From: Carex sylvatica
Taxonomy: Eukaryota > Streptophyta > Magnoliopsida > Poales > Cyperaceae
Reading direction: 5' to 3'
Assembly: GCA_964058845.1 (NCBI GenBank)
Contig: CAXKVR010000043.1
Location: 62,001 to 126,000 of the forward strand
DNA length: 64,000 nt
The position numbers and the translations under genes were made by a program. Positions 15,203-35,918 of the stretch are shown here, one piece after another. Under the pieces are notes generated by a model that was not told the origin of the DNA, did no database searches, and saw only the letters and a program-made list of their open reading frames with translations. Each line of letters starts with the position of its first letter. Position 1 is the stretch's first letter.

Positions 15203-16720
15203 TGATGTGAGATTCCTATATCTCTTATGCAAGTAATAAATCCTAGTTTATACTCAATTTGGTTGCAAGTGTACAACCTAGTCAAGTAGTACTTAGGGAT
15301 CGTCTCCACAGGGACAAGTCGAAATATTAATTCTAACCTAACGATTTAATTTAGTAAAAGCGAAGTAAAAAGTGTTTTGTTTGTTTAAGATGTTTGTTTG
15401 GTAGTGATTAAACTGAATTAAACTAAAGTCTCAAAGTGAAATTTGGTTTTAAACAAGTAAGAGAAATTAGGGTTTCTTAGGGTTCCTATCCACTAATGCC
15501 GTGATTAATTGGTTTGTTAAATTTGATCTTATATTTATGAAGGCACAGTTGGATGTTGTAGGTACAAAGTGATATCTCTATATTAATACCATCTTAAAAT
15601 TAGAATAAACGTCACCTCTCGGTACTTGGCTACACTAATCTAAAGTCATTAAGTTTTTACTGTCCCAATTTATCTAGAAAGCTATTCGTCACCTCTCGGT
15701 ACTTGGCACAATTCTCTAAACTATTGGATAAAGCCCGTATAAGACACGCGTCACATCTCGGTACTTAGCCTATCAAATACCCTATTCCTTATGGTCGAGA
15801 CTTAATATTCAATTTCTCAATTGCAAATACCAAATCCTAAGATTTCATGTGATTTCGATTAAGTCTTCACAATCAATTAAAATAAAGAATAGATCATAAT
15901 AAAGAACAAGAAGATATGAAATAAAACCAACTAAATCATAACAAAAGTTTCAATTACAGCCCTAATTAACCCTAGAAAAGTCCTTAGCCGATCATGGCTA
16001 AGGCACAAATGAAATTAAAAGAGTTCAAAGAGTTTCAAAAGCAAGAAAGATAATAAAACCGGTGGATGAATGATGTTCTTTTCTCCCTTCTTTCTCTCCT
16101 TTTTCTCCTCTCTTTTCTCTCTTCTTTTCTGTCTAAAAACTCTCTAAATTTCGTCCATGACCGTCCTTTTTTTTATTCCCCCCTGGTAAATCCTAAATAA
16201 ATAACTAAAAATAGCAAATTCGGGCTCTGAACCGACTTATTGTGAGCCGCAATCAATTCTATTGCGGGCCGCAATGAATGGAGGCAGTTAATAACTTGCC
16301 GCGCAGAAACTGCAGAAGTCATTGCGGGCCGCAATGAAAACCATTGCGGGCCGCAATGAATATGCAGGAATGAAAGCAGAAACTGTAGAAGTCATTGCGG
16401 ACCGCAATGAAAACCATTGCGGGTCGCAATGAATATGCAGGAATAAAAGCAGAAACTGTAGAAGTCATTGCGGGCCGCAATGAAAACCATTGCGGGCCGC
16501 AATGAATGTGCAGTTGCTCCAATCTTCATGCTGACTTGCTACAAATCACCCGTTTTGCTCCGTTAAGCTCCAAACACTTGATTACCTGTAAAATAAACAT
16601 AACTAGGGCAGTAACTTGAACTTTCGGATATTTTTACCTAATTAGACCTAATTTAATCAAAACTTGGCTTAATTTACATAACTAACCCTAGGTTTCAATA
16701 GATACAATTTTGGCTTATCA
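15203..16720 (-). repeat. 3' LTR of element B (1518 bp)
   Basis: Starts TGATGTGAGA and ends GGCTTATCA, as does its partner. It is 146 bp longer because a 73-bp unit carrying a dyad pair is present three times (starts near 16321, 16394 and 16467) rather than once. Confidence 0.95.
16239..16503. repeat. Dyad array in B 3' LTR: four pairs of ATTGCGGNCCGCAAT
   Basis: Palindromes are at 16239-16253/16261-16275, 16321-16335/16343-16357, 16394-16408/16416-16430 and 16467-16481/16489-16503. Every pair is exactly 22 bp centre to centre. The last three pairs lie in 73-bp tandem units. Confidence 0.95.
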
Positions 16721-16735
16721 AATTCCCCCAAGCTT
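16721..16735 (-). other. Polypurine tract of element B
   Basis: On the minus strand this is AAGCTTGGGGGAATT directly before the 3' LTR, the expected primer site for plus-strand DNA synthesis. Element A has the same tract in the same place. Confidence 0.85.
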
Positions 16736-17684
16736 GAACATTGCTTGTCCCCAAGCAACATCTAAACTTGAAATACAATTCGATCTCTAATTTAACCTTA
16801 TATGAAATATACATTTTTAAATTGTAAAATTTGTATGAGCTTGCCAAAGTTTAGAAACCTCAATGTAAATTTCTACAAATGTAAAGTTCAACCCTTGGTT
16901 AATCATACTTCACACCACAATTCGATTACTCTAACTTTTTATTTCCTTAAAGGCTTAGAATTTGTAAACTTCGGTTATCTAAATTTGTTACAAAAAATAC
17001 AATCTTATTTGTGAAAATTCTTTTAAAAATCCCCCAAGCTTGGATCAAGCTTAGGTTAGAAAGTCGCGGACATCGTGTGTTGATATTTACAAAATTTAAT
17101 TTTTCTTTTGTTGCTTTTATTTGATGACACTCCTTAGGACAAAACTGGTTAGTTATGGGTAGCTAATCCATACCCAATTGTTTTAATTCAAAAGCGCATT
17201 TGCATGCTCATGGTTCAACCCTTCCATGACACGAATTCACATGTTTAGTGCGAACCCGGTCACTTTATCGGGCAAACTAGCGGAGCAAAGTGTCAATGAT
17301 TCATTGCTATAAGTACGTCATATCGCCGTAATATAAGCAAGCGGAATCTTATTTTCTTAAAAAAAAAAAAAAAAATTTTAATTTTGAACAATTTTTGCAA
17401 AATATCATGAATACACACATCCATATGCATTAAATCATACTCATGAATATCCCGATCTTTCTAAATTTATTTTCTACATATAAGTTGCATTTTCAAAAAA
17501 AAAAAATTTAAATTTCTAAGTTTTCATTTTCGTAAACCTTTATTTCCACTAAGTTTTTCGTCAATTTATGGAGTTATTTCAAATTATTCCAAGGGTATTC
17601 CTAAAACTCGTTAAAATTTACACAAAAATTAAACATGATTTTATACTTTATGCATTTTCAAACAATTAAGTCCAATTATGCAAG
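16736..17684 (-). other. 3' untranslated part of element B
   Basis: Noncoding AT-rich DNA between the insertion site of A and the polypurine tract of B. A second polypurine-like box (AAGCTTGGGGGA on the minus strand) lies near 17031-17043. Short open frames here carry no recognisable domain. Confidence 0.6.
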
Positions 17685-17859
17685 ACTCTTGATATCTCCA
17701 TATTATATCTGAATTATGGCCCTAATTTACAATGAAACCTGTGCTTTAAAGCCTATTAATGTGGACTTTTTTACTTATATTTCGATGAAATGTGGTACTG
17801 CTATGTTTTGTTTGGTATTTTGCAGGAAAAAGGGCGAAAAACTGGTTCTGACAACTTTT

Positions 17860-17995
17860 CATACGGCCCGTATGATATTCTGTGCGGGCCGTACAAGAAC
17901 TGCCCAACCACACAGAAGGATCCACAACAGAGGCACGAAGTCTCCAAGTCAAAGCCCAGGCATACGGGCCGTACGGGATCCTGTACGGGCCGTAC
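17860..17995. repeat. Two dyad pairs in U3 of A 5' LTR
   Basis: CATACGGCCCGTATG (17860-17874, a perfect palindrome) pairs with 17882-17894; 17961-17974 pairs with 17983-17995. Centre spacing is 21-22 bp. The pairs are about 100 bp apart. Confidence 0.95.
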
Positions 17996-18809
17996 AAAGC
18001 TGATTCGGAAAATCCAGCTGGAATCTGAATTGAGCACAATTTGAGGAGCCGAAAAGGAAACCCCTGGAGGCGTGATCTGGGGCATTAAAGGAGATATTCC
18101 ACAGCAGGAAAGGGGATTAATAGCTAATCAATCAATAACTTTCTGATCATCATTCATTCTATCATGGATTCTCTCTAGGTTTTTGGACAAGGGGAAAAGA
18201 AGAAGAGAAGGGGAAGAACGCGAGTTTTCCACGGATCTTCAGATTTTCCACTGTTTTATCATGAACTCTTTTATTTCTTGTTATTTGTGCTATCTCATGA
18301 ATATGAGTAGCTAATTTACTTTGTTTCTAGGGGTAAGATGTAGTTTCTAGTTTTGTTTTGCTTGTATGCTACTTGGATTTTGTGTTGAACGCTTTGTTTT
18401 TACTTTGTTATGTAGTATTTTTATTGCTCTATTTGTGCTTGCTTGAATCTGATTAGTCATCCCGTTAGATGAATGCGCACATCTAAGTGTGGAGCCAAGT
18501 CTATGAAATTCATTCCAACCGAATAAAGTATATGAAGTAGGGTGAAACCAAGGAGTACCCGAAAGGCGAAACTTTCCTTGAGGCGAAAGTCCTTGGATAC
18601 TTTTAGTAAACTAGCAAGTAACTTAGATAAATTAGGCCAAAATGCGAAAGTTGAGGTTTAACGCATCTAAGAGGGAAGTACTTGAGTCCGGTAATCGGGT
18701 ATCAGGCCAAAATGCGAAAGTTGAGGTTAGGTACCTAGATCTGGTCAAAAGAAACCCTAAACACAGTATCAACACAGGAAACAGTAGCTGCAGCATTAAC
18801 TTGAGGTGC

Positions 18810-18844
18810 CATACGGACCGTACGGGAATCTGTACGGGCCGTAC
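18810..18844. repeat. Third dyad pair in A 5' LTR
   Basis: CATACGGACCGTAC (18810-18823) and GTACGGGCCGTAC (18832-18844), centres about 21.5 bp apart, near the 3' part of the LTR. Confidence 0.95.
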
Positions 18845-19169
18845 GCCTTGAGACTGAACAGAAATGAAATCTGAACCCTGGAAACGCCCTTTTATCAATT
18901 GAAAACAACTTTAATTATCTCTTATTGTCTTTTAATCAGTAGAATTGTTAGAACTAAAACCAAACCAAATTCTTCTCACTTCTAGAATCTCAAGTGATTT
19001 TAGGATAAGTCCAGTGTTTTTATTCCGTCCCTGTGGATCGATACCTGAGCATACTCAACGACAGGATAGTTCACTTGCTATCTGAATTGACAGAGTATAA
19101 CAAAGGTTTAAGAAGTATAGCTTGCTATACTGAAACTTTTTGGCATATATTCTCGTGCGATCAAGTTTT

Positions 19170-19187
19170 TGGCGCCGTTGCCGGGGA
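19170..19187 (+). other. Primer-binding site of element A (tRNA-Asp type)
   Basis: TGGCGCCGTTGCCGGGGA lies six bases after the LTR. It is complementary to the 3' end of plant tRNA-Asp, the usual primer of Athila elements. Confidence 0.85.
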
Positions 19188-19372
19188 CGGCAACTAAAAT
19201 TCTATACTTTTTCTTATTTTTGCTTGATTCTAGATTTTAATTTTAATTTTTCGTATTCTATCTTTGCAGGAACATACTGGAAGAGTCATTGCCCAAGAAC
19301 CACTACCAACTTAGAAGCAAAGGGCAAACTTCCAATACATTTGTTCCAGCGCCACCACATCTGTCACCTCTC

Positions 19373-19406
19373 CGTACGGCCCGTACAAAATTCATACAGG
19401 CCGTAC
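19373..19406. repeat. Dyad pair in the leader/gag start of A
   Basis: CGTACGGCCCGTAC (19373-19386) and CATACAGGCCGTAC (19393-19406), 20 bp centre to centre. It lies before the first in-frame ATG (19448). Confidence 0.9.
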
Positions 19407-19447
19407 AAACCGACAACAGAGGCCAGACAGATCCAGAACAAAGCAAA

Positions 19448-22400
19448 ATGAACAACCACGGTGCTGAACAAGATCCACTCAACGAGGGTACTGGACAAGG
19501 TCAACCCAACGAGGATCAATACTCTGATGACGAAGGAGCAAACTATGCACCAAGGACGTTGCGAGAGTTCAATGTCCCGCGAGCTGGAGATGTTAGAGGA
19601 GCAATCCGATTGCCAAGGATTGTAGGCAACCAACCCAACTTCAATCCGGGCGTTGTAAACATCGTGCAACAAAACACATTCCATGGCATGGATCATGAGG
19701 ATCCACATGCCCATGTTCAAACCTTCCTTGAATGCTGTGCCACCATTAAAATTAATGGCGCAACAGCTGATTATATTAGACTTGCTTTATTTCCTTTTAC
19801 TCTTAGGGATAAAGCCAAGAAATGGTTAGGGTCATTACCAAGGGATTCAATCACCACTTGGAGGGAATTGTCCAAACTGTTTTTGACCAGATTTTTCCCC
19901 CATAAAAGAACTGCCAAGGTTAGGACCCAACTGACCAGTTTCAAACAAAGGTCTGATGAACCATTGAATGAGGCATGGGAAAGGTTTAGGGAATTGCAAT
20001 ACTCTTGTCCACATCATGGTATTCCCGAATGGTTACTTATTCAATCTTTTTATGCTGGTTTAACTGATACCACTCGTACTTCTGTAGATGCAGTTGCAGG
20101 TGGAGCTCTCATGGATCGAGACGCTACTGAAGCAATGAACTTAATCGACAATATGGCGACTAACCAACAGTGGTCAGGCCGAGAGGGCAATCGACCAACT
20201 GGAGGAGGTCGACTTGAGCTCGATCAGATCACAGCTCTCACCGCCAAGTTTGACGCTATGCAGAAGGCTTTTGACAAGATGAGTGTCAAAGCACTCGGTA
20301 ATCAGCAACCACAGCCTTGTGTTATGTGTGGAGACGAGGGGCACGAGTATGAGAATTGCCCGCTTGCGCAAAGGGATGAAGGGCCCGAGCAAGTTAACTC
20401 TCTCAACAGTGAACCATCCTACTTCCCAAAACCTCCTTTCAGCCGAACCTATTCCAAGGATCCGATTGAACAACAGAATTGGAGGTGGAAGCAAAACAAT
20501 CCCACACAATTCAACAACAACCCTTCTGGCAGCAACAACAACAACAACCGCAACTTCTACAACAATGCTGCATTCAATAACTCAAACAACCGACCACCAT
20601 ATTCTGGACCATCTAAGCCCTATGTTGCTCCTGCAGTAGAAAACTTCATGCATGAACAAGGGAAGATGAATCAAATGCTTTTCGAACAGATGCAAACGAT
20701 CAGTGCTCAATTGGCAAGTTTGGCCCAAAACAAACCTCAAAGTGGGAGCCAAACTGCACCACCACAACCTGGGATGCTACCAAGCCAACCAGAGATTAAC
20801 CCCAGGGGAGAGGCCAAAGCGGTGACGTTGCGAAGTGGGACACAATACCAAGGACCAGCCATACCTGTCGAGCCAGAAGCCGACCATACGGTCCGTACAA
20901 ATCCCATACGGCCCGTACCAACACCCCCTGCGATTTCTGAACAGTCAAAGCCTGATCCGATTGAGGTTGTGACTGAGACAACAGACCATACGGTCCGTAC
21001 AAATCCCGTACGGCCCGTACCGAATGAAACTGATAAACAGAAAAAGAAGGTGACCGAGAAACCACCGCCCTACCGGCCACCAGTACCATTTCCACAGAGA
21101 CTAGCCGAAACCCGACTCAATGAACAATTCTCAAACTTTCTTGGAGTTCTCAAGCAATTGCACATTACCATCCCATTTACCGAGGCTTTGACCCAAATGC
21201 CAACCTATGCTAAGTTTCTCAAAGATATCCTATCCAATAAACGAAGCTTGGGGGGGCACGAGACGGTGAAATTGACTGAACAGTGCAGTGCTATCCTGAG
21301 AAATGAACTTCCACCGAAATTAGGAGATCCGGGTAAATTTTCCATTCCATGCACGATTGGCAAAGCAACCATCCGACAAGCTTTATGCGATTTGGGGGCT
21401 AGTGTGAGTCTCATGCCGCGAACTATTTTCGAACGAATGGGTGTAGGCGAGCTTAGACCTACACGGATGACTTTACAACTTGCGGATTCTTCGATGAGAC
21501 TACCACTTGGCATAGTGGAGGATGTACCGGTTCGAGTCGGTAAGTTCTATGTGCCCGGTGATTTTGTTGTGATGGAAATGGAGGAAGACAAGGAGGTCCC
21601 TATTATTCTAGGACGGCCGTTTTTGAGAACCGCCGGGGCGCTAATCGATGTGAAAAATGGGACTTTAACCTTGAACATTGGAGATGAGAAAGTTCACTTT
21701 CAAATCGACCGAGCAATGAAGTATCCCGCTCAACCCGAATCGTGTTATATGGTCGATGTGATTGATGAATTAGTTGAAGAGAAGTTAATGGAGCAAATCA
21801 ACAACTCTCTAAGGTATCATTCTGATTTTTTATCTGATTTGCAGGCTGAAACAGGTGATCTTGAGAGAATTTGCGCAGCAGACATGACACCTGTCTGTCT
21901 GGAAGATTTTCCGTACGGGCCGTACACAGATCATACGGACCGTACAACAGACGAATTTAAAACAGAGAAGCTGGAGATTGAGAAGGAACCAAAAGGCCAG
22001 TCTGAAGCTGAGGCATACGGTCCGCACGAAATCCATACGGCCCGTACAACAAGCCAGACAGCACAGACCACTCCCGAATTAAAACCTCTCCCAGCCACTC
22101 TCAGGTACGAATTCCTTGACTCAGAAAAGACATGTCCTGTCATTGTGAATGCAGGGTTGACCCCTGACCAGACCGCCAAGCTCATGGAGAAGTTGAGAAC
22201 CCACAAAAGCGCGATTGGGTATTCTATCAATGACTTGAAGGGGATCGATCCAACCACTTGCACACACAGGATCTTGCTAGAAGACGACCACAAGCCTTCA
22301 GTTGAACACCAAAGACGGCTCAACCCGAATCTAAAAGAGGTAGTAAAGAAAGAAATTTTAAAACTTTATGAAGCAGGTATCATCTACCCGATTTCTGACA

Positions 22401-25096
22401 GCAAATGGGTGAGTCCCGTCCATGTGGTTCCCAAGAAAGGAGGAGCAACAGTGGTGAAAAATGAGAAAGAAGAGATGATTCAAACGCGCGTTGCAACCGG
22501 TTGGAGGATGTGCATAGATTATCGGAAGCTCAACGCGGCTACACGCAAGGATCACTTTCCTTTGCCATTTGTTGATCAACTCCTTGAGAGGCTTGCTAAC
22601 CACTCATATTTTTGTTATCTTGATGGATATTCAGGTTTCTTTCAGATTCCCATTCACCCGCAGGATCAAGAGAAGACCACATTCACATGCCCATACGGCA
22701 CCTATGCATACCGTAGAATGCCCTTTGGTCTTTGCAATGCACCTGCGACTTTTCAAAGAGCCATGATGGCTATTTTTTCTGACTTTATTGAAAAAGAAGT
22801 TGAAATTTTTATGGATGATTTTTCTGTATACGGTACTTCTTTCGATTCTTATTTGGGTAATTTGTGTAAGATTTTGCAGAGATGTGAAGAAGTCAATTTA
22901 GTCCTCAATTGGGAAAAATGTCATTTCATGGTCCAAGAAGGAATTGTCTTGGGGCATGTTATCACCTCTAGAGGGATAGAGGTTGATAAAGCAAAAATTG
23001 AGGTAATCGAGAAACTTGAAATCCCAACAAATGTCAAGGGGGTTCGAAGTTTTCTTGGACATGCCGGTTTTTATCGCCGTTTCATAAAAGACTTCTCAAA
23101 AATTGCGAAACCTTTGACCAATTTACTTATTAAAGATTCTGATTTTATTTTCACTGATGATTGTATCAAGTCCTTTTGCAGTTTAAAGGAAGCTCTTATC
23201 TCTGCACCTATCTTACAACCGCCAGATTGGTCACTACCGTTTGAGTTGATGTGCGATGCAAGCGACTATGCAGTCGGAGCAGTTCTGGGACAACGGAAAG
23301 ACAAGAAGCCGTGCGTTATTTACTATGCTAGCAAGGTGCTAGATCCGGCCCAAATGAACTACACCACAACCGAAAAGGAGCTCCTCGCCATCGTATTTGC
23401 TCTCGATAAATTCAGATCATATTTGGTGGGCTCGAAGATAGTGGTCTACACAGATCATGCCGCACTAAGGTACCTTTTAAGTAAAAAAGATGCAAAACCA
23501 AGACTGATTAGATGGATTCTTCTTTTGCAGGAGTTCGATCTTGAGATAAGAGATACGAAAGGAGTCGAGAATTCTGTAGCAGACCATCTGTCACGTCTTC
23601 ATTGGGAAGAAGATACCACAACTAAGCTCCCAATCAATGACTCATTCCCCGATGAACAACTCCTTGCAATCAGTTCTGATCTGGACGACAACCATACGGG
23701 CCGTACAGAAGTTCATACGGCCTGCACAATCCACCATACGGACCATACACAAACTCATACGGACCGTACAAGTACCAACCAGTCCAAACAGCAGACTCCC
23801 TGGTATGCCGATATTGCGAATTACCTGGTCTCTGGAGTTTTGCCCTCCACAATGTCCCAACAACAGAAGAAGAAACTAAGGTCAGATTCCAAGTACTACT
23901 TTTGGGACGAGCCCTATCTCTTCAAGGTTGGAGTTGATGGCGTATTCCGACGCTGTGTTCCATTCGAGGAAACAGATTCTATTCTTGCACATTGCCACTC
24001 GTCCGCTTATGGAGGACACTCTTCATTCTCTAAGACCACTGCCAAGGTATTACAATCTGGTTTCTTTTGGCCTTCTCTTTTTAAAGATGCAAGATCTTTT
24101 GTTATAGCTTGTGATAGGTGCCAAAGAACTGGAAACATGACAAGACGAAGTGAGATGCCTCTCAACTTTATTCTTGAGGTCGAGATTTTTGATGTTTGGG
24201 GCATCGATTTCATGGGTCCATTCCCATCTTCTCGAGGGAATGAGTATATTTTGGTGGCAGTCGACTATGTATCAAAGTGGGTTGAGGCCATGGCGTGCCG
24301 CAAGGCTGACTCGAATTCGGTAAGAAAGTTTTTCAATGAGATCATTTTCCCTCGTTTTGGGGTCCCTCGAGCTGTCATTAGTGACGGAGGCAAGCATTTC
24401 ATCAATCGACAATTCAAAAAACTATTGAGCCGACATGGGGTGACTCACAAGGTATCAACTTCTTATCACCCTCAAACTAATGGCCAAGCTGAAATTTCTA
24501 ACAGGGAAATCAAGTCGATTTTAGAGAAAACGGTTGCAAGGACAAGGAAGGATTGGGCTTTCAAGCTGCATGATGCACTCTGGGCCTACCGCACCGCATT
24601 CAAGACACCGATTGGCATGAGCCCGTACAAGCTGGTGTATGGAAAGCCGTGTCACCTTCCTGTTGAAATTGAGCACAAAGCATTCTGGGCCACAAGAGCG
24701 ATCAACATGGACCTGCTTGCAGCTGGAGAAAAGCGTGTCCTCGACTTGCATGAGTTGGAGGAAATGAGGTTGCATGCATATGAGAATGCGAGATTTTACA
24801 AGGAAAAGACGAAGCGATTGCATGACCAGCGCATTTCGCCTCGCCAGTTCAAAGAGGGAGATCTTGTACTTTTATTTAACGCTAGATTGAGAATTTTTCC
24901 AGGTAAACTCAAATCGAGATGGTCCGGCCCATTTCAGGTGGAGAAAGTGTACCCTTTCGGAGCAATTGATATCTGGAGCAAAGAAAGTGGTACCTTCAAG
25001 GTAAACGGTCAGCGTCTCAAGCACTACGTTGCCGACCACTTGATGGATGAGCGGAATGTTCAGTTTCTTTCTAACCCCGCTCAGATAGAAGTTTAA
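19448..25096 (+). CDS. Gag-Pol polyprotein of element A (Athila-like)
   Basis: About 1882 aa from the first in-frame ATG. The frame is open back to 19289, but no ATG lies there; a TTTGCAG|G acceptor-like site at about 19270 could feed a spliced leader. Order: gag ([16 protein letters not shown], later [19 protein letters not shown]), CX2CX4HX4C zinc knuckle at 20318-20359, aspartic protease with DLGAS at 21389-21403, reverse transcriptase with FMDD at 22808-22819 (in place of YMDD/YVDD), RNase H ([14 protein letters not shown] ... YTDHAAL), and integrase with zinc-binding N-terminus, GIDFMG, SDGG near 24382 and GQAEISNRE near 24482 as the DDE triad. There are no frameshifts or stops. It assembles particles, copies the RNA and integrates the DNA. 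Linkers between domains carry DNA dyads. Confidence 0.96.
20885..21020. repeat. Two dyad pairs between gag and protease coding regions
   Basis: 20885-20898/20905-20918 and 20987-21000/21007-21020, each 20 bp centre to centre. Because 20 is not a multiple of 3, the two members of a pair are read in different frames (HTVRT, then IRPV or VRPV). Confidence 0.95.
21912..22046. repeat. Two dyad pairs between protease and reverse transcriptase
   Basis: 21912-21925/21932-21945 (20 bp) and 22014-22027/22033-22046 (19 bp). Here the first member is read in the third frame, giving PYGPY, so all three frames are used within one gene. Confidence 0.95.
23693..23769. repeat. Run of four dyads between RNase H and integrase
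   Basis: Dyads at 23693-23706, 23714-23727, 23735-23748 and 23756-23769, exactly 21 bp apart each time. All four fall in one frame (HTGRT, HTACT, HTDHT, HTDRT). Confidence 0.95.
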
Positions 25097-25136
25097 GTTG
25101 AAAGGTGGTCTAGCTAACGACCTTAAATGAGCGCTT

Positions 25137-25154
25137 CTTGGGAGGCAACCCAAG
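25137..25154 (+). promoter_or_regulatory. Conserved stem-loop after the pol stop in element A
   Basis: CTTGGGAGGCAACCCAAG forms a 6-bp stem with a 6-nt loop 41 bp after the stop. The same 18 bases follow the integrase remnant in element B (30073-30090, minus). Conservation at the same place suggests an RNA function, such as ending translation or starting the next frame; this is inference. Confidence 0.65.
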
Positions 25155-25306
25155 CATTTTTAAAATTATTTTGTTTGGTCATTTCTCTTATTGTTATTAC
25201 TTTAGTTTCTAAATATTTAATTTGCTATTAGTTTAATTTTGATTTTTCATTTTGTAGTTGTCTTTCAATTCTGATCAGATAGGAGAAGAAATCATCTCTG
25301 CAGGTT

Positions 25307-25340
25307 GGTACGGTCCGTACACAATATCATACGGGCCGTA
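25307..25340. repeat. Dyad pair between pol and the second ORF of A
   Basis: GGTACGGTCCGTAC (25307-25320) and CATACGGGCCGTA (25328-25340), 21 bp centre to centre, in noncoding DNA. Confidence 0.92.
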
Positions 25341-25860
25341 GGGCACCCATCCGACGCAGAAACTCAAGGGGCGCGACCTTTTCTCTTCGCGTTCCTTCGC
25401 ATCAATTCGCGTCCCTTCGATTAGACCTCTTCCCTTTTAAACCCGACCCCCCCCGACAGACTCTACCCCACACCACCTCCTTTTGTCGTTTTCTTCCTAC
25501 GGACCGAACACCACCCCGTATAACCAAAACCCTAGCCGCCGCAACTTCTCCTCCGCCGCTCTCCGCCTCTCGCTACCCACCGGCCGCCCCACTCTCCGCC
25601 ACCCTTCTATCCGCCTCTAGCGGATCGCTGCCACCTCACCTCCGCACCACCCTTCTCTTTTCCACTGGTCACCGATCTTCTCTAGCGGCTCACCACCACC
25701 GGTCACCATCTCTAGCAGAGCACCACCGCCCTCGTTCGCTGCTACACCCTAGTGATTCCCTCCAAGCCGCACTACAAATCCCTCGCCGCCGACAATTATT
25801 CTACCAAGACACCGACCAAACCCTACCAGCCGCCTCCTTCCCCTCTGAGCACACACCAGC

Positions 25861-25940
25861 CCTACGGCCCGCACAGACTCCCCATACAGGCCGTACCAAC
25901 CACCGTCCGACCCGTACAAATCCCTCTCCGGGCCGTACCA
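25861..25940. repeat. Run of four dyads just before the second ORF of A
   Basis: Cores centred at 25868, 25890, 25911 and 25932 (22, 21 and 21 bp). Two are imperfect (CAGGCCG, CGACCCG), but spacing is kept. The run ends 17 bp before the ATG. Confidence 0.88.
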
Positions 25941-25956
25941 CTTCCTACTGACAGCT

Positions 25957-27291
25957 ATGTCTGGTGAGCGCCGTCAAAAGCGGCGCCAAGACCGCTCCCC
26001 CACACCACCCCGTCATCCCTCACCAGAGCCCTATGACTCCGGCTCTGACCGCACTTCCTCTGGTGAATACACCGACCGCGCCGACCGCTTCGCGGCACGG
26101 TACTTTGAAATGCCCACTCGTCGGATGTACGAGAACTTCATCTCTTTACAACGGCGAGTATTCGAGAACACCGCCATGGTTCACTTCGACACACTCCACG
26201 CTCTTGGCGTCGAGGATGATTTCCTCCGTCTCACCGCTGGAATTGGGTTCAGCCCAGATTTCTGGAACATTCGCAACCCCGCCTACGAGATGGACACCAA
26301 GGAATTCCTCTCCTCTCTCGAGCTGAAGTTGGACAACCACGATGTCCTCTTCATCAAATTCCGGCTCTGTAATCAAACCCATCGCGTCTATCTCTCCTCT
26401 CTACGCGAGTGGTTCGGTTTCTATCGCGAGCCCACTACTGACACTCTCAGTTTCCGACCTGGGTGGGATCGAGATACCTTCTGGGCCATGATCACCGGCT
26501 GCCCTCGCTCCGCCAATGCATCATACCGAGCCCGCTACATCCCTCACCCGGTTCTGCGTATCATCCAGCGCGCCCTTGCTTCTACCATCTTTGCGCGCGG
26601 TGAGACTCAGAACCGCGCCAACACCGTCGACCTCATGCTCATGGATACCATGCTCCGTGCCGACTCTGAGTATCCAGACTTAGCCCTTCTCATGGTCCAG
26701 CACTGGATTGGGCAGCAGTCCAAAACCAGGCACGGTGGCAAGATCAAAATTGGGGCTTATGTCGAGGTCATTAAGCAACGCCTTGGCTTGGGTGAGTATC
26801 CAGGTCGAGACCCCTGTCCGGGCCCCACTCTGATGGACCTTGAGAGCTACCGCCTGGCTCTCTTCCTCACTATCTCCCGGGGCCCGGCCGGTCACTCTGA
26901 CTACTATGAGTGGCGCTTTGCCGATGGCTCTTCCCGCCGCCTACCATTTGGACCATCCATCACCGTGGACGACCCCTCCACCTGGTTGGTCTCCGCTACT
27001 CCACCTCCTGCCTCTGACATCCCCAGTACCTCCTTCCAGCCACCCACATCTGCGTATGCCCGCCCTTGCCCAGCTGACCCCTCTCTTAGGGATCTCTACT
27101 ACCTCATGACTGATATCCGGGCCACTCAGCTGCAGCAGGACCGCTACATCACAGCCATCCAGGAGCAGACGGCCATTCACACCACTCGACTGGATGAGAT
27201 TAGTGGCAGCATGTTTGACTATGCCGAGCGTCTTGGTGACATCGAGGACCAGTTTCGCGACTGGCGCTTCGACCCCTCTTCTGACTACTGA
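25957..27291 (+). CDS. Second ORF of element A, ATHILA ORF-1-type protein
   Basis: 444 aa with an ATG start, separate from pol by about 860 bp. It starts with a basic, Ser/Pro-rich tail (GERRQKRRQDRSPTPP). The body (PTRRMYENFISL, FSPDFWNIRNP, YLSSLREWFGFYREP) resembles the plant ATHILA ORF-1 family, and the C-terminus is heptad-like with likely coiled coil (QQDRYITAIQEQTAIHTTRL). In Athila elements this position is often called envelope-like, but I see no signal peptide, membrane segment or glycoprotein pattern. The basic tail and coiled coil would also suit a nucleic-acid-binding, dimeric protein. Local GC content is much higher than its surroundings. Function unknown. Confidence 0.8.
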   Translation: MSGERRQKRRQDRSPTPPRHPSPEPYDSGSDRTSSGEYTDRADRFAARYFEMPTRRMYENFISLQRRVFENTAMVHFDTLHALGVEDDFLRLTAGIGFSPDFWNIRNPAYEMDTKEFLSSLELKLDNHDVLFIKFRLCNQTHRVYLSSLREWFGFYREPTTDTLSFRPGWDRDTFWAMITGCPRSANASYRARYIPHPVLRIIQRALASTIFARGETQNRANTVDLMLMDTMLRADSEYPDLALLMVQHWIGQQSKTRHGGKIKIGAYVEVIKQRLGLGEYPGRDPCPGPTLMDLESYRLALFLTISRGPAGHSDYYEWRFADGSSRRLPFGPSITVDDPSTWLVSATPPPASDIPSTSFQPPTSAYARPCPADPSLRDLYYLMTDIRATQLQQDRYITAIQEQTAIHTTRLDEISGSMFDYAERLGDIEDQFRDWRFDPSSDY

Positions 27292-27348
27292 TCAGGTTTC
27301 TTTCTCCCTACCCTAGCTTATTTATTTTTCCCATTACATATCCTGAAG

Positions 27349-27384
27349 CATTGAGGACAATGCTCGGACTAAGCTTGGGGGGGT
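27349..27384 (+). other. Polypurine-like box after the second ORF of A
   Basis: A GAGGACAATGCT stretch followed by TAAGCTTGGGGGGG, 58 bp after the stop. It repeats the layout of the box before the 3' LTR (28252-28286), and a third shorter copy lies at 27947-27960. It could be a second start site for plus-strand synthesis. Confidence 0.55.
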
Positions 27385-27841
27385 GATTAGTTATTTTCTT
27401 TATTCAGCATTTAGTTTGTCTTAGTTTGTTTCTGTGTTTGCATGTTTTGAGGATTAAATCTGTGTGAATTGCGTGAATTAGGGTTCAATTTGAAAAATTT
27501 TGGTTGTGAAATGGTTGAATTTGGGAAATTGGAAATAACCACACGTTTGGTTGAAAGAACTGTATACGATAGTCTGTTTTGGGACTTTGTAGAATTGAAT
27601 TGAATTGTGCCAAGAAAGCATTTGAAACCGGAATATGCCTTGTAAAAATAGAAAAATGGGATTTCAAAACAATAGAAAGATTTGGATATCCATTGGTATG
27701 AATGAATATCATTGGATGTGTGTATTCATGATGAATACGAGGATAAAAGATAAAAAAAAAAATTCTTGAAAAGAATGAAAAGATGGAGAATATAAGAGTA
27801 CTGGCAATAAGCCATGATTTGGCGCCTTTGAGCTCGTCTCC

Positions 27842-27875
27842 CATACGGACCGTACCCAGATCATACGGGCCGTAC
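27842..27875. repeat. Dyad pair in the 3' untranslated part of A
   Basis: CATACGGACCGTAC (27842-27855) and CATACGGGCCGTAC (27862-27875), 20 bp centre to centre. Confidence 0.95.
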
Positions 27876-28271
27876 ACCTAACAAAAAGGGTGCCTTTACA
27901 TACATCAACACACGAAGTCTGTGACCTTTCTGACCTAAGCTTGTTCCAAGCTTGGGGGAATTCAAAGAAAAACAAATCACCACAAATGAGGGCATAAATT
28001 CGGTGAAAGAATGAACTATTGATGCGTTTGATTTCTTAGTTCTTACAAATAGCATTACATTCTTGAAGTTAGGGTTTGATCAATTGAGTTGTGGGGTGAA
28101 TTAAATTGACCAAAGGAAACCAAGTTACTATCCAAAATGACTCTAATGGATTTCTAACGAACGCAAGATCATGCACATTTTTCCTCTTAGTAGATTAAGT
28201 TGCATTTAGGTAAGTCCAACAACCCGAACCACACCTAAGTTAGAATTTTTGCTTGAGGACAAGCAAAGTTC

Positions 28272-28286
28272 AAGCTTGGGGGAATT
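28272..28286 (+). other. Polypurine tract of element A
   Basis: AAGCTTGGGGGAATT plus T immediately before the 3' LTR. Confidence 0.88.
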
Positions 28287-29760
28287 TGATATCTCCATAT
28301 TATATCTGAATTATGGCCCTAATTTACAATGAAACCTGTGCTTTAAAGCCTATTAATGTGGACTTTTTTACTTATATTTCGATGAAATGTGGTACTGCTA
28401 TGTTTTGTTTGGTATTTTGCAGGAAAAAGGGCGAAAAACTGGTTCTGACAACTTTTCATACGGCCCGTATGATATTCTGTGCGGGCCGTACAAGAACTGC
28501 CCAACCACACAGAAGGATCCACAACAGAGGCACGAAGTCTCCAAGTCAAAGCCCAGGCATACGGGCCGTACGGGATCCTGTACGGGCCGTACAAAGCTGA
28601 TTCGGAAAATCCAGCTGGAATCTGAATTGAGCACAATTTGAGGAGCCGAAAAGGAAACCCCTGGAGGCGTGATCTGGGGCATTAAAGGAGATATTCCACA
28701 GCAGGAAAGGGGATTAATAGCTAATCAATCAATAACTTTCTGATCATCATTCATTCTATCATGGATTCTCTCTAGGTTTTTGGACAAGGGGAAAAGAAGA
28801 AGAGAAGGGGAAGAACGCGAGTTTTCCACGGATCTTCAGATTTTCCACTGTTTTATCATGAACTCTTTTATTTCTTGTTATTTGTGCTATCTCATGAATA
28901 TGAGTAGCTAATTTACTTTGTTTCTAGGGGTAAGATGTAGTTTCTAGTTTTGTTTTGCTTGTATGCTACTTGGATTTTGTGTTGAACGCTTTGTTTTTAC
29001 TTTGTTATGTAGTATTTTTATTGCTCTATTTGTGCTTGCTTGAATCTGATTAGTCATCCCGTTAGATGAATGCGCACATCTAAGTGTGGAGCCAAGTCTA
29101 TGAAATTCATTCAAACCGAATAAAGTATATGAAGTAGGGTGAAACCAAGGAGTACCCGAAAGGCGAAACTTTCCTTGAGGCGAAAGTCCTTGGATACTTT
29201 TAGTAAACTAGCAAGTAACTTAGATAAATTAGGCCAAAATGCGAAAGTTGAGGTTTAACGCATCTAAGAGGGAAGTACTTGAGTCCGGTAATCGGGTATC
29301 AGGCCAAAATGCGAAAGTTGAGGTTAGGTACCTAGATCTGGTCAAAAGAAACCCTAAACACAGTATCAACACAGGAAACAGTAGCTGCAGCATTAACTTG
29401 AGGTGCCATACGGACCGTACGGGAATCTGTACGGGCCGTACGCCTTGAGACTGAACAGAAATGAAATCTGAACCCTGGAAACGCCCTTTTATCAATTGAA
29501 AACAACTTTAATTATCTCTTATTGTCTTTTAATCAGTAGAATTGTTAGAACTAAAACCAAACCAAATTCTTCTCACTTCTAGAATCTCAAGTGATTTTAG
29601 GATAAGTCCAGTGTTTTTATTCCGTCCCTGTGGATCGATACCTGAGCATACTCAACGACAGGATAGTTCACTTGCTATCTGAATTGACAGAGTATAACAA
29701 AGGTTTAAGAAGTATAGCTTGCTATACTGAAACTTTTTGGCATATATTCTCGTGCGATCA
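28287..29760 (+). repeat. 3' LTR of element A
   Basis: 1474 bp, one difference noticed from the 5' LTR. It carries the same three dyad pairs, at 28457-28491, 28558-28592 and 29407-29441. Confidence 0.97.
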
Positions 29761-29765
29761 ACTCT

Positions 29766-30062: not shown

Positions 30063-32876
30063 TCAAGAAGGACTTGGGTTGCCTCCCAAGAAGCGCTTGG
30101 TTTTAGGTCTTCGGCTCGACCCATTTTCTTGGACTAGGAGGGGTGTTGATCGGGCATCGGTAAGGGAGATGCTTGTAATCCCTTCAACCGGTTCTCCATA
30201 GTTGTACCCCTTGAGTCGCTGCCCATTTACTTTAAATGCTCCTATTCGCTCGCTCCATATTTCTACCTTGAGCGCATCCTCCGAGGTTTCGACAAAGTTA
30301 TGAAGGATCTCAGCGGTCGAAACTTGAAAAATCGGGTTTAGAATAGGCTTCTTGTCCTTCTGGAAGGGTTTACTGCGGGCCGGAACAGATTCATTGCGGG
30401 CCGCAATGAGTTCTGGTGGATTCAGGTGTTCTGACTGAGGATGTTGCGGGCCGCAATGGGTGTTGTTGCGGGTCACAATTATTTCACGATTTTCTTCCTC
30501 CTCTGACTGAAGATGTTGCGGACCGCAATTGGTTTCATTTCGGACCGCAATGGTATCAACAGAGCTCGTTTTGTGAGCTTGTTCGCATTCCTGATCCATC
30601 CAATACTCAAAGGAACCATTCCTCAAGTTGTTCATGAGCTCTTCATCTATCAACCTGTCAAGAATATCAACACTAAAAACACTTTGATCGTTAGATGGAT
30701 ATCTCATAGATCTTTTGATATCGAATTTTAATTTTTCTTCACCAATATTCATTGTTATAATTCCATCATGAACATAGATTACAGCTTTTGCTGAATTGAG
30801 GAATGGTCTACCTAGCAAGAGTGGTGTATGAATGTCCTCATCCATGTCAACCACAACAAAATCTATTGGTACAAAGAACTTTCCAATTTGAATTGGCAAG
30901 TCCTCTACCACTCCTAAAGGTAGCTTAACCGATTGGTCTGCCAATTGAAGAGATATTCTAGTTGGCTTAAGTTCTCCAACACCTAACCTATCATACACCG
31001 ACTTTGGCATAAGACTTACGCTTGCTCCTAGATCACAAAGTGCACGTTTGAATTGGACATTTCCAATAGAACATGGTATGGAAAATTTACCCGGATCATC
31101 CAACTTTTTGGGCAATTCATTCATTACCATGGCACTACCGTTGGTGTCTAAGGATACAATTTGTACTTCTTCAAGTTTACGCCTATTTGAAAGAATGTCC
31201 TCGAAAAATTTGGTGTAAACCGGCATTTGGGTCATTACCTCAGTCAATGGTAGGTTTACATGCAATTGTTTCAACAGTTCAAGGAATTTGGCAAATTGTT
31301 TGTCGATTTTCTCATTCTTAAGTCTACCAGGAAAAGGTGCGTATTTGTGAGGAGGAGTGTAGAGAGGTACTTGTGCACTCACCTTTGGTGACTCACCTTG
31401 AGATGGTTTTGCTTGTCTCGCATGGTCGCTTGGTGCAATGGGTGTGGTTTCCTTTGAGGCGGAATCCTCATGTGTGGAGATGTGCTCATCATTGCCTCTT
31501 GTCTCTTCACCTTGCGGTTGCACGTAGTCACTTTTTGGCAAAGGTGGATCCTCATATTGCATACCGCTGCGAAGCATGTGCCTAACCGCCTTGACATCCT
31601 TGGGATTGTTCTCGAGTTTTGGCGGAAGGGTGCCCGGTTGGTGAGAGAATTGTGTAGCTTGTTGTGCAACTTGGTTTTCAAGCATTTTATTTTGGGTTGC
31701 CAACATATCTACCTTTTTGGTCAATTCATCAAACTTTTGATTTTGACTTGTCATGAAAGCCTCAATCATCAATTCAAGATTGGATTTCGGTTGTACATTA
31801 GAACCATACCCTTGATTTGGTCTATTATAGTTTGAGTTACCTTGGGTCGGTTGGTCATTTTGTCTCCACGAAAAGTGTGGATGATTTCTCCACCTGGGGT
31901 TGTAAGTATTGGCATAAGGATTGTTATTTGGTTCGAAATTGCCTTGGTTAATTGCATTAACCTCTTCAATACTACCCTCATTACTTAGGCCACAATTAAT
32001 TGCTAGATGATTGGTACCACCACAAATTGAACAAGGAAGAAAAGAGGATTTGTTTACCGAGTTTACGCTCATTTGATCAATTTTGCGATTCAAAGCGGCA
32101 ATTTCTGCAGCCAAGTTCGGATTCGGATTCATCTCTTTCATCCCCCGCTGCATGATCATCGGTGTCTCCCTAGGGTTGTGCCATTGGCTTTGGTTGAGAG
32201 CCATGTCATCAACCAACTTGTATCCATCAATAGCCCCTTTATTCATGAGACTCCCTCCAGCAGCTGCGTCTAACATACCCTTGTCCTGTGGCATGAGACT
32301 GTTGTAGAAGATTTGCAATAAATTCCACCCCTCGATACCATGGTGGGGACAGCACCTCTGCAGTTCTTGAAATCTCTCCCACGCCTCACTGATGGTTTCA
32401 TCTCCTTTCTGTCGGAAATTGTGGATTTGATGGCGCAAGGAGTTTGTTTTGGACGGTGGAAAGAATTTGTTAAGAAAGGCACTTGCCACCTTAGGCCAAG
32501 TATTCATGTTCTCGGGCTGTTGTCCCCTTATCCAACCTTTAGCCTTATCTGCAAGAGAAAAAGTAAAGGCCATTACTTTAAGATTTTCGGGAGAAACAGT
32601 TTGTACCTTAATCGTGCTGCAGATTTCTTCAAAATTGGCTAAGTGTTGTGTGGCATCTTCGTGAAGGAGACCATGGAACAGATTACGCTGCACCATGCTA
32701 ACCCATGCAGGCGGAATTTGATATTCTTCAGCATTGATAGTAGGTGCCGTATAGCCAAGGTGGATTTCCTCAGCCCTAGGTGCTGTGAAGTCTCTCAAAG
32801 GGCGGTTGGCATCGGCTGCTTCATTGTTTTCTCTTTCAACAGCGGCTGCCCGTAGTTGTTGAAGTTCATCAGCCAT
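30063..32876 (-). CDS. Gag-protease protein of element B fused to an integrase tail
   Basis: 937 aa, ATG at 32876. It contains gag (FHGLLHEDATQHLANFEEIC; ISEAWERFQELQRCCPHHG), a CX2CX4HX4C knuckle (CSICGGTNHLAINC) and protease ([21 protein letters not shown]). After a linker with DNA dyads it jumps to [20 protein letters not shown], which matches the last part of integrase in element A ([20 protein letters not shown]). Roughly 1,100 residues of RT, RNase H and integrase are absent, yet the frame is open. A TAG lies directly before the ATG; 18 further open codons from an ATG at 32933 precede that TAG, so the original start was probably lost. It resembles non-autonomous elements that keep only gag (TR-GAG type), here with protease. 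Confidence 0.9.
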   Translation of the reverse strand: MADELQQLRAAAVERENNEAADANRPLRDFTAPRAEEIHLGYTAPTINAEEYQIPPAWVSMVQRNLFHGLLHEDATQHLANFEEICSTIKVQTVSPENLKVMAFTFSLADKAKGWIRGQQPENMNTWPKVASAFLNKFFPPSKTNSLRHQIHNFRQKGDETISEAWERFQELQRCCPHHGIEGWNLLQIFYNSLMPQDKGMLDAAAGGSLMNKGAIDGYKLVDDMALNQSQWHNPRETPMIMQRGMKEMNPNPNLAAEIAALNRKIDQMSVNSVNKSSFLPCSICGGTNHLAINCGLSNEGSIEEVNAINQGNFEPNNNPYANTYNPRWRNHPHFSWRQNDQPTQGNSNYNRPNQGYGSNVQPKSNLELMIEAFMTSQNQKFDELTKKVDMLATQNKMLENQVAQQATQFSHQPGTLPPKLENNPKDVKAVRHMLRSGMQYEDPPLPKSDYVQPQGEETRGNDEHISTHEDSASKETTPIAPSDHARQAKPSQGESPKVSAQVPLYTPPHKYAPFPGRLKNEKIDKQFAKFLELLKQLHVNLPLTEVMTQMPVYTKFFEDILSNRRKLEEVQIVSLDTNGSAMVMNELPKKLDDPGKFSIPCSIGNVQFKRALCDLGASVSLMPKSVYDRLGVGELKPTRISLQLADQSVKLPLGVVEDLPIQIGKFFVPIDFVVVDMDEDIHTPLLLGRPFLNSAKAVIYVHDGIITMNIGEEKLKFDIKRSMRYPSNDQSVFSVDILDRLIDEELMNNLRNGSFEYWMDQECEQAHKTSSVDTIAVRNETNCGPQHLQSEEEENREIIVTRNNTHCGPQHPQSEHLNPPELIAARNESVPARSKPFQKDKKPILNPIFQVSTAEILHNFVETSEDALKVEIWSERIGAFKVNGQRLKGYNYGEPVEGITSISLTDARSTPLLVQENGSSRRPKTKRFLGGNPSPS
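30073..30090 (-). promoter_or_regulatory. Conserved stem-loop at the end of the B ORF
   Basis: Same 18 bases as 25137-25154 in A. Here the ORF reads through it and stops just after (FLGGNPSPS). Confidence 0.6.
30370..30550. repeat. Three dyad pairs inside the B coding region
   Basis: Cores centred at 30379/30400, 30450/30472 and 30522/30544 (21, 22 and 22 bp), in the linker after the protease. They are B-type (TTGCGGNCCGCAA), some imperfect. Confidence 0.92.
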
Positions 32877-33176
32877 CTAATTCCGTTCTCTTTGAAGGTT
32901 TTGAAAACGAACCTCTTCATTTCCGGTCGACATGTCTAACCGGCGTGGACTTAAGTGCAAGAAAGGTCCCCTTGTCGGGTGTTTGTTTCTTCTCTCGTAG
33001 AAAAGATGAGTTGACCCCTTCCTAGAAAACCACTCAACCAAATCTGTGGCGTTCGGGGTTGGAGGTTCCTCTGCCAGGTTTCAACCTGAAAAATGAGAGA
33101 GAGAGAAAGAAAGCAAAAGAAAATTAAAAACAATTACTAACTAAATTACTTAGGTCTGAAATAATATTCACCGTTG

Positions 33177-33194
33177 TCCCCGGCAACGGCGCCA
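33177..33194 (-). other. Primer-binding site of element B (tRNA-Asp type)
   Basis: On the minus strand TGGCGCCGTTGCCGGGGA follows the 5' LTR at six bases, the same as in element A. Confidence 0.85.
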
Positions 33195-33200
33195 AAAACT

Positions 33201-34572
33201 TGATGTGAGAATCCTATATCTCTTATGCAAGTAATAAATCCTAGTTTATACTCAATTTGGTTGCAAGTGTACAACCTAGTCAAGTAGTACTTAGGGATCG
33301 TCTCCACAGGGACAAGTCGAAATATTAATTCTAACCTAACGATTTAATTTAGTAAAAGCGAAGTAAAAAGTGTTTTGTTTGTTTAAGATGTTTGTTTGGT
33401 AGTGATTAAACTGAATTAAACTAAAGTCTCAAAGTGAAATTTGGTTTTAAACAAGTAAGATAAATTAGGGTTTCTTAGGGTTCCTATCCACTAATGCCGT
33501 GATTAATTGGTTTGTTAAATTTGATCTTATATTTATGAAGGCACAGTTGGATGTTGTAGGTACAAAGTGATATCTCTATATTAATACCATCTTAAAATTA
33601 GAATAAACGTCACCTCTCGGTACTTGGCTACACTAATCTAAAGTCATTAAGTTCTTACTGTCCCAATTTATCTAGAAAGCTATTCGTCACCTCTCGGTAC
33701 TTGGCACAATTCTCTAAACTATTGGATAAAGCCCGTATAAGACACGCGTCACATCTCGGTACTTAGCCTATCAAATACCCTATTCCTTATGGTCGAGACT
33801 TAATATTCAATTTCTCAATTGCAAATACCAAATCCTAAGATTTCATGTGATTTCGATTAAGTCTTCACAATCAATTAAAATAAAGAATAGATCATAATAA
33901 AGAACAAGAAGATATGAAATAAAACCAACTAAATCATAACAAAAGTTTCAATTACAACCCTAATTAACCCTAGAAAAGTCCTTAGCCGATCATGGCTAAG
34001 GCACAAATGAAATTAAAAGAGTTCAAAGAGTTTCAAAAGCAAGAAAGATAATAAAACCGGTGGATGAATGATGTTCTTTTCTCCCTTCTTTCTCTCCTTT
34101 TTCTCCTCTCTTTTCTCTCTTCTTTTCTGTCTAAAAACTCTCTAAATTTCGTCCATGACCGTCCTTTTTTTTATTCCCCCCTGGTAAATCCTAAATAAAT
34201 AACTAAAAATAGCAAATTCGGGCTCTGAACCGACTTATTGTGAGCCGCAATCAATTCTATTGCGGGCCGCAATGAATGGAGGCAGTTAATAACTTGCCGC
34301 GCAGAAACTGCAGAAGTCATTGCGGGCCGCAATGAAAACCATTGCGGGCCGCAATGAATGTGCAGTTGCTCCAATCTTCATGCTGACTTGCTACAAATCA
34401 CCCGTTTTGCTCCGTTAAGCTCCAAACACTTGATTACCTGTAAAATAAACATAACTAGGGCAGTAACTTGAACTTTCAGACATTTTTACCTAATTAGACC
34501 TAATTTAATCAAAACTTGGCTTAATTTACATAACTAACCCTAGGTTTTAATAGATACAATTTTGGCTTATCA
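33201..34572 (-). repeat. 5' LTR of element B (1372 bp)
   Basis: TGATGTGAGA...GGCTTATCA. It has one dyad unit fewer by two than the other LTR. In sense orientation its 5' end is 34572. Confidence 0.95.
34237..34355. repeat. Two dyad pairs in B 5' LTR
   Basis: 34237-34251/34259-34273 and 34319-34333/34341-34355, each 22 bp centre to centre, about 235 and 317 bp from the LTR 5' end. Confidence 0.95.
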
Positions 34573-34980
34573 GTCTACAAGGGCATTTTGTTAAGAATTT
34601 TGGAAGAAGAGTATTTTGTTTTATGTTTTGAAAAAGAAGGGTACTTTGTAAAATTTATGAGGAGAGAAAATTGTTACACTAAAAGTATATAACAAAGTTT
34701 CAGTACAGTAAACTGTACCTTTTAAATCTTGGTACACTTTTCGAATCGAATTGCAAGTGCACAATCCTATCGAGTAGTATGATAAGGTATCGATCCAAGA
34801 GACGGTTCAAATTTAAACTAGACTTAACATAAATTAATTGAAAGACTAGAAGTGTGTGAAAAGTTGATTTGATTGTTTTATATCCTAACAACAGTAATAA
34901 AAAATAACTGGTAATTTATATTGGGTTTCTAAATTGGTTTAAAATGGTTTCTGACTCATCTACAACTCTGTCTCTCGGCT

Positions 34981-35016
34981 GACACGACTCGTGTTGGAAT
35001 TGATACGGTCCGTGTC
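34981..35016. repeat. C-type dyad pair near the LTR 3' end
   Basis: Cores CGACTCG (centre 34988) and CGGTCCG (centre 35009), 21 bp apart, in ACACGNNCCGTGT-like flanks. It is 1093 bp from the LTR 5' end; the matching pair in A is at 1137. Confidence 0.85.
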
Positions 35017-35790
35017 AGCTTTGGATAAATACAGCTGTTATCTGATTTCTACACTGATTGACTTGTGTAGAGTAAACTGACCGTACCTGATGTTCTTAAG
35101 CCTCAACTCTCGTTTGTTGGCTTAATAAACTCGATAACGGAATTGCAATTTAGTCCTCTCGGGGTTCTAACCTCAACTCTTGTTTATTGGTTTGAATTAC
35201 CTAAGTCACTTGTTTGGTTTACTAAAGATATCCACCATCTCTCGATGTATGGAAAGTTTACATCTCGGCTACTAATTGGTTCTACCTCTCGGTTTGTGAA
35301 CCTACCTCAAATACTAGTCTGGTTGAAAGACCAAATTGGACACAATACCTTATAGATGAGGCCTCATCTAATGGTTAAACCAAATAATAATCAATCAATT
35401 TCAAAAAAATAATTAAAATAATACTCAAGCAAGCAAACACAAGAATCAACACATAATCAAATAACTAGCAAGTAAATAAAGTATTTGACTACATCATAAT
35501 CCTAGAAACTAAAAATCTACTCAAACATCATTATAAAAATAACAAAACAAGAGTAAGAAAGATAATTCACGACAAAACCCAAAAATACAAAGAAGAATCG
35601 TCGAAAATATTGCGTTTTCCTCCTCTCTACTTCGCCTCCAAGTCAGCTACCAAGAAGTCGCCTAGGGTTAGCTCTTGTATGCTAAGATACCCCTCATAGA
35701 GCAAGAAATACTGCTTATATGGTCCCAAGATCGACTTTCCTTCCTTCAGACTTCTTTCCAAAATTTTAGATTTCCTGTCAGATTTTGTCT

Positions 35791-35918
35791 GACACGACCC
35801 GTGTCAGAATTGACACGGTCCGTATCAATGTGCTTCTTCTGTGATCGAGTCAGCGGTTAGACTGGTGATCGGGTCGAGGCTGATACGGTCCGGACAAGAT
35901 GTTGTACGGTCCGTGTCA
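35791..35918. repeat. Two C-type dyad pairs near the LTR 5' end
   Basis: Centres 35798/35819 and 35889/35910, both 21 bp. Distances from the LTR 5' end are about 283 and 192 bp, against 288 and 187 in element A. Confidence 0.88.

What the first reader, a model, noticed from the sequence alone, without database searches (positions are those of the whole stretch)
16239..35918. Paired CGGNCCG palindromes, two helical turns apart, in three Athila-like families with family-specific flanks
Elements A, B and solo LTR C all carry 13-15 bp palindromes with the core CGGNCCG, nearly always in pairs or runs. Centre spacing is 19-22 bp at every site I measured (A 19-22, B 21-22, C 21). The arms differ by family: TA(CGGNCCG)TA in A, TTG(CGGNCCG)CAA in B, ACA(CGGNCCG)TGT in C. 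Two-turn spacing puts the sites on one face of the helix, as expected for cooperative binding of a dimeric protein. Change of the arms with retention of core and spacing looks like co-evolution with a family-specific binder, comparable in spirit to the VANC proteins and motifs of VANDAL transposons. I know of no such description for Athila elements.
Basis: partly seen in the sequence, partly recalled or inferred. Interest (0 to 1): 0.9.

Follow-up and report, generated by a model that had tools for sequence, protein, structure and literature searches.

The report
Paired DNA palindromes in plant retrotransposons
Several families of these plant retrotransposons each carry their own short palindrome, repeated in pairs about two DNA turns apart, and the pairs stay in place while their letters change, which looks like docking sites for a fast-evolving DNA-binding protein.

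Summary
Region 16239-35918 has 48 CGGNCCG and 18 pairs at 19-22 bp (simulations: mean 1.39 sites, no pair). Genome-wide, 928 of 1444 pairs at spacing 8-38 lie at 19-22 (reversed-pattern control 9 of 85).

New: Athila relatives carry other family-specific dyads, some with another core (TGCGANTCGCA, CCGCANTGCGG, AGTGCGNNCGCACT), again mostly 19-22 bp apart. Eight boxes of A align with boxes of related families, all four pairs exactly 20 bp apart, with arms replaced on both sides. Fourfold sites in boxes show no shared variants (0 of 22; outside 105 of 506). Carex rostrata proteins are compatible with the same pairs. ORF-1 is 40-49% identical where RT is 85-88%.

Best reading: cis-sites for a dimeric nuclear DNA-binding protein. 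New variant of a known kind.

The parts
17690..29760 (+). Element A: complete Athila-type LTR retrotransposon inserted in B; ACTCT at 17685-17689 and 29761-29765
   Evidence: LTRs one mismatch in 1476 aligned bases
17690..19163 (+). A 5' LTR; CGGNCCG boxes start at 17864, 17885, 17965, 17986, 18814, 18835 (three pairs 21 apart)
28287..29760 (+). A 3' LTR; boxes at 28461, 28482, 28562, 28583, 29411, 29432
19247..25096 (+). A gag-pol open frame (gag, protease, RT, RNase H, integrase)
19377..19403 (+). A pair in the first part of the gag-pol frame (19377 exact, 19397 one mismatch), 20 apart
20889..21017 (+). A two pairs in the gag-protease linker: 20889/20909 and 20991/21011, each 20 apart
21916..22044 (+). 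A two pairs in the protease-RT linker: 21916/21936 and 22018/22038, each 20 apart
23697..23766 (+). A run of four boxes 21 apart between RNase H and integrase (23697, 23760 exact; 23718, 23739 degenerate)
25311..25935 (+). A boxes between pol and ORF-1: pair 25311/25332, single 25500, run 25865, 25887, 25908, 25929
25957..27291 (+). A ORF-1 (444 aa), Pfam PF03078; candidate partner of the boxes
27846..27872 (+). A pair in the 3' noncoding part, 20 apart
15203..16720 (-). B LTR with 73-bp tandem units; exact boxes at 16265, 16325, 16347, 16398, 16471, 16493
33201..34572 (-). other B LTR; exact boxes at 34263, 34323, 34345
30376..30547 (-). B boxes inside its open frame (30063-32876): 30376, 30397, 30447, 30519, 30541 exact, 30469 degenerate
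34671..36094 (-). C: stretch similar (72-78%) to the LTR-side sequence of the C298 family; boxes at 35006, 35816, 35886, 35907. That it is a solo LTR was not tested

Best explanation
The boxes are family-specific dyad binding sites for a dimeric nuclear DNA-binding protein; two dimers sit side by side about two helical turns apart. They lie in the LTRs and, in Athila, also in linkers between protein domains and in noncoding parts, so the protein would be spread over the whole 12-kb element and help keep it transcribed or less silenced. Shown here: enrichment, spacing, fixed positions, replacement of both arms, conservation of the letters within family A. Inferred: that it is a protein, a dimer, acts on DNA, and the function. 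I lean to host transcription factors used by several retrotransposon lineages, because chromovirus-like elements of the same genome share two box types and Sireviruses of other plants have the same CGG-CCG core.
For: 928 of 1444 CGGNCCG pairs at 19-22 bp, control 9 of 85; 46 of the 48 TTGCGGNCCGCAA pairs at 21-22, control 0; 87 of 99 neighbour spacings under 50 bp at 19-22 in nine element sets (counted). Eight boxes at homologous places with all four pairs 20 apart in four sequences; from A to L049, 9 of 10 double changes at mirrored positions stay complementary. No shared variants at 22 fourfold sites in boxes versus 105 of 506 outside. The same box types in chromovirus-like elements. Published CGG-CCG boxes in Sireviruses (PMC2829016).
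Against: No binding data and no binder. Three of 10 RT relatives show no box in 2.4-2.5 kb. Exact TGCGANTCGCA pairs occur nowhere in the genome, so that type is degenerate. Some boxes are unpaired. Most within-family departures are one-sided: 163 single against 6 symmetric double changes. The shuffled control uses places that are not palindromes to start with and boxes change in concert, so its odds flatter the case. An RNA role is not excluded. No Ty1/copia control was obtained.
Confidence: 0.5

Rival explanations
1. VANC-like system: the Athila ORF-1 protein itself binds the boxes of its own family and counteracts silencing; ORF-1 and boxes co-evolve.
For: ORF-1 is 42-49% (A-C298) and 40-44% (A-C87) identical where gag, PR and RT are 80-89%, and these families differ in box letters. 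The model has a long C-terminal helix 377-438 that could dimerise. A related Athila ORF carries nuclear signals (PMC11728184, passages). VANC motifs are short, family-specific and repeat-borne, and one unrelated element shares a VANC6 motif (PMC5735166, passages).
Against: No DNA-binding fold or family recognised for ORF-1. Chromovirus-like elements carry boxes too; whether they have an extra ORF was not tested. Exchange between families, known for Athila (PMC2410132, passages), could also explain the ORF-1 contrast.
Confidence: 0.2
2. RNA-level signal: the two boxes of a pair form a hairpin in the element's RNA, for packaging, export or interplay with small-RNA silencing.
For: 8 of 10 tested stretches fold better than shuffles at z -2.2 or lower. 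Small RNAs map to palindrome clusters in maize Sireviruses (Bousios 2016 as cited in PMC10760457, passages).
Against: Centre bases of the two boxes pair in 19 of 82 pairs, about 22.4 expected by chance, and in 0 of 28 pairs of B, C31, D and E. Covariation within and between boxes is equal (753 of 920 each), so it decides nothing.
Confidence: 0.15
3. Passive repeats: box pairs are a small satellite or tandem expansion from one founder, without function.
For: B's LTR boxes lie in 73-bp tandem units, three in one LTR and one in the other.
Against: A has boxes in about ten separate places; spacing holds while letters turn over inside coding linkers; fourfold sites in boxes are conserved; families of different lineages that share a box type align over little more than the pair itself.
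Confidence: 0.05

Closest known systems
Sirevirus (Ty1/copia) repeated motif (RM) boxes, Bousios et al. 2010, PMC2829016 (abstract and sections 9, 10, 19 read)
   Different: Here in Ty3 elements (Athila and chromovirus-like); boxes paired at 19-22 bp; also inside gag-pol linkers; homologous places with replaced arms; some families without the CGG core. Pair spacing is not discussed in the sections read.
VANC proteins and motifs of VANDAL transposons, PMC5735166 and PMC10398659 (passages read)
   Same: Short family-specific motifs at high density, gain and loss by tandem repeats, rapid change of motif between related families, an unrelated element sharing a motif.
   Different: Retrotransposons, dyad boxes in pairs, boxes also in coding parts, no demonstrated binder or loss of methylation.
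Athila lineage of Ty3/gypsy elements with PF03078 ORF-1
   Same: Domain order of gag-pol, PF03078 ORF downstream of pol.
   Different: No description of such boxes in Athila was listed in the nine paper searches.

Membership tests
Athila (element A) | Ty3-type gag-pol with PF03078 ORF downstream of pol, between LTRs | tested here: met
Sirevirus RM boxes | multi-copy palindrome with CGG-CCG core | tested here: met
   A, B and C types met; the C87, C140 and C258 types do not have this core arrangement
Sirevirus RM boxes | carried by a Ty1/copia Sirevirus | tested here: not met
   A is Ty3-type with PF03078; E and F are chromodomain-like Ty3 elements. So not members; they may work alike
Sirevirus RM boxes | boxes in the LTR and before the env-like gene | tested here: met
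   A LTRs and 25311-25935 before ORF-1
Sirevirus RM boxes | box clusters define CpG islands | not tested
   -
VANC/VANDAL anti-silencing | high-density family-specific motif | tested here: met
VANC/VANDAL anti-silencing | motifs mainly in noncoding regions | tested here: not met
   A has boxes in at least four places inside gag-pol
VANC/VANDAL anti-silencing | element-encoded VANC protein | tested here: inconclusive
   ORF-1 matches only PF03078 at E 1; no VANC sequence was compared
VANC/VANDAL anti-silencing | binding and loss of DNA methylation | not testable with these tools
   -

The most novel reading that the evidence does not exclude
Athila retrotransposons run a VANC-like, family-specific system: the fast-evolving ORF-1 protein binds paired palindromes spread over its own element, even inside coding linkers, and shields it from silencing; related families avoid cross-talk by replacing all their boxes in concert, and chromoviruses carry the same boxes and profit from it.
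Probability: 0.2. Interest if true: 0.92.

Novelty: new variant of a known kind. Interest (0 to 1): 0.66.

Why it matters
It gives a handle on two open questions: what the extra ORF of Athila does, and what the palindromic boxes of plant LTR retrotransposons are for. The families form a natural series in which position and spacing are fixed while letters vary, so a binder and its specificity could be found with matched and mismatched boxes in one assay.

Full report
Setting. The window lies in a plant assembly of 64 Mb in 950 contigs. Element B's protein is 81% identical over 86% of its length, and up to 92% over a third, to proteins of Carex rostrata, a sedge; that the host is a sedge is inference. 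Element A (17690-29760) is a complete Athila-type element with a gag-pol frame, a downstream PF03078 ORF-1, LTRs with one mismatch in 1476 aligned bases, and ACTCT on both sides. It sits inside B, a minus-strand element with LTRs at 15203-16720 and 33201-34572 whose open frame has gag and protease but no RT match.

Observation. There are 54 exact CGGNCCG in the window and 48 in the reported region, with 18 pairs at 19-22; 300 simulations gave at most 5 sites and no pair. Genome-wide, CGGNCCG pairs at centre spacing 8-38 number 1444 (reversed pattern 85), of which 928 (reversed 9) lie at 19-22. The strict A pair at spacing 20 occurs 127 times against 0; of the 50 places that the listing showed, 43 lie within 8 kb of an A-like RT match and 7 do not. 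B-type pairs number 48 against 0, 46 of them at 21-22 and 2 at 40. In 29 further A copies (the best RT matches) aligned with the window copy, boxes are mostly kept, for example 27 of 30 rows identical at 20991; one or two rows have deletions at some boxes.

Other families. Ten RT relatives of A at 88 to 43% identity were read upstream of RT. Seven carry a repeated dyad: ACACGG..CCGTGT in L046 and L047 (88, 87%), TGCGANTCGCA in L049 (84%), CCGCANTGCGG in L050 (82%), TTGCGGNCCGCAA in L051 and L052 (81, 80%), AGTGCGNNCGCACT in L053 (72%). Three (L048 at 82%, L054 and L055 at 44 and 43%) show none in 2.4-2.5 kb. More was read of five of them. The dyad is far above expectation in each: A 24 copies (both LTRs counted), expected 0.009; C298 11, expected 0.011; C140 13, expected 0.003; C31 12, expected 0.004; C258 9, expected 0.005; C87 only in the short form GCGA-N-TCGC, 7, expected 0.07. 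Over nine element sets, allowing 2-3 mismatches, 87 of 99 neighbour spacings under 50 bp are 19-22 (counted). Genome-wide, CCGCANTGCGG pairs number 71 against 0, but exact TGCGANTCGCA pairs 0.

Same places, new letters. In the gag-PR and PR-RT linkers, eight boxes of A align with boxes of L046, L047 and L049; some of these have 2-3 mismatches to their family's dyad. All four pairs are 20 apart in all four sequences, while distances between pairs vary. From A to L049, of 40 mirrored positions 9 changed on both sides and stayed complementary, 1 changed on both sides without pairing, 14 changed on one side and 16 not at all; random places in the same alignment gave a mean of 0.39 symmetric double changes and never 9 in 2000 sets. 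A to L046 and to L047 give 3 of 40 each (20 and 19 of 2000 sets as high). The random places are not palindromes to start with and the boxes change in concert, so these odds are flattering; the plainer fact is that 9 of 10 double changes are complementary, where about one in three is expected. Within family A, fourfold sites in boxes show no shared variants (0 of 22; 105 of 506 outside; p 0.012; CpG fourfold sites alone 0 of 9 versus 25 of 69, p 0.051), and CpG columns fewer (3 of 37 versus 59 of 249, p 0.03). Private CpG changes are equally frequent inside and outside. This points to selection on the letters in active copies, not to protection from mutation after insertion. Columns of one box are not independent.

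Other species. Of 210 proteins (209 listed by three searches, where one search listed 120 of 170, plus window B), only window B and P0142 of Carex rostrata have codon-compatible B-type boxes 19-22 apart, both at 22 and in the same stretch. P0005 of Carex has compatible C87-type boxes 20 apart, and P0004 has three, two of them 102 apart as are the first boxes of two pairs in A. For the A type only P0122 of 141 proteins has a compatible pair. This is back-translation, not DNA. Rhynchospora P0002 and Carex P0003 have other 7-residue repeats in the same linker.

Not only Athila. LTR stretches E (C99) and D (C91) have TTGCGGNCCGCAA arrays, mostly 21-22 apart; F (C188) and C8 have CCGCANTGCGG. E and F proteins end in a chromodomain-like stretch below Pfam's cut-off (21.5 and 24.7 bits against 25.1), as in chromoviruses; this was not shown for D and C8. 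D, E and F were chosen because they carry boxes; C8 was chosen by RT alone and has them too. B against D or E aligns over only 35 bp, D against E over 38-44 bp, and C31 against D over 37 bp and one weak 89-bp stretch (73%), which suggests convergence. C140 (Athila) and C8 share 309 bp at 82% around C140's boxes, which suggests exchange between lineages.

ORF-1. Between A and C298 identity is gag 80, PR 89, RT 88, integrase core 83, ORF-1 42-49%; between A and C87 gag 82, PR 85, RT 85, ORF-1 40-44%. ORF-1 thus diverges, or is exchanged, much faster than the rest; exchange between Athila families is known (PMC2410132, passages). The model (mean pLDDT 76, 23 sequences) has a folded part from about 42 to 330 and a helix 377-438 without a PDB match. 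A sunflower study reports nuclear signals for a related Athila ORF (PMC11728184, passages and the Discussion), another reports Athila clades with methylation drops in the LTRs (PMC12844716, passages).

Mechanism and limits. A protein dimer on each dyad and two dimers per pair is the simplest reading of held two-turn spacing, two-sided turnover and selection. RNA hairpins remain possible: 8 of 10 stretches fold better than shuffles and covariation does not discriminate, though centre bases pair no more than by chance (19 of 82, about 22.4 expected). Host factor or ORF-1 cannot be decided from sequence. Precedent: Sirevirus RM boxes (PMC2829016, abstract and sections 9, 10, 19). New here are the Ty3 setting, the pairing, the boxes in coding linkers and the turnover at homologous places.

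Noticed in passing
window 9651-9830: Four CGGNCCG sites 15-18 bp apart outside the Athila elements, about 1.3 kb after a hAT-like frame; similar CGGTCCGGGTA..ACCCGGTCCG pairs at spacing 15-18 recur in the genome list and look like another repeat.
   Followed up: partly
window 14071-15197: Nested inverted repeats (arms 14071-14488 and 14785-15197, 84-92% complementary) ending 6 bp before B's LTR.
   Followed up: no
window 15203-34572: A is nested in B; B lacks RT in its open frame and its LTRs differ in the number of 73-bp box-bearing units, 3 against 1.
   Followed up: partly
G000 contig C896: 8, 4335 and 8662: Three PF03078 matches about 4.33 kb apart in the same direction, as if a piece of Athila were tandemly repeated.
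   Followed up: no
L065 2628-2934 and L073 1978-2275: A 309-bp box-bearing LTR stretch is shared at 82% by an Athila family and a distant Ty3 family; a third element inserted in both was not excluded.
   Followed up: partly
P0002 (Rhynchospora) and P0003 (Carex): Seven-residue (21-nt) peptide repeats in the gag-protease linker (TRSEM.., NAGCTDD..) that may encode further box types.
   Followed up: partly
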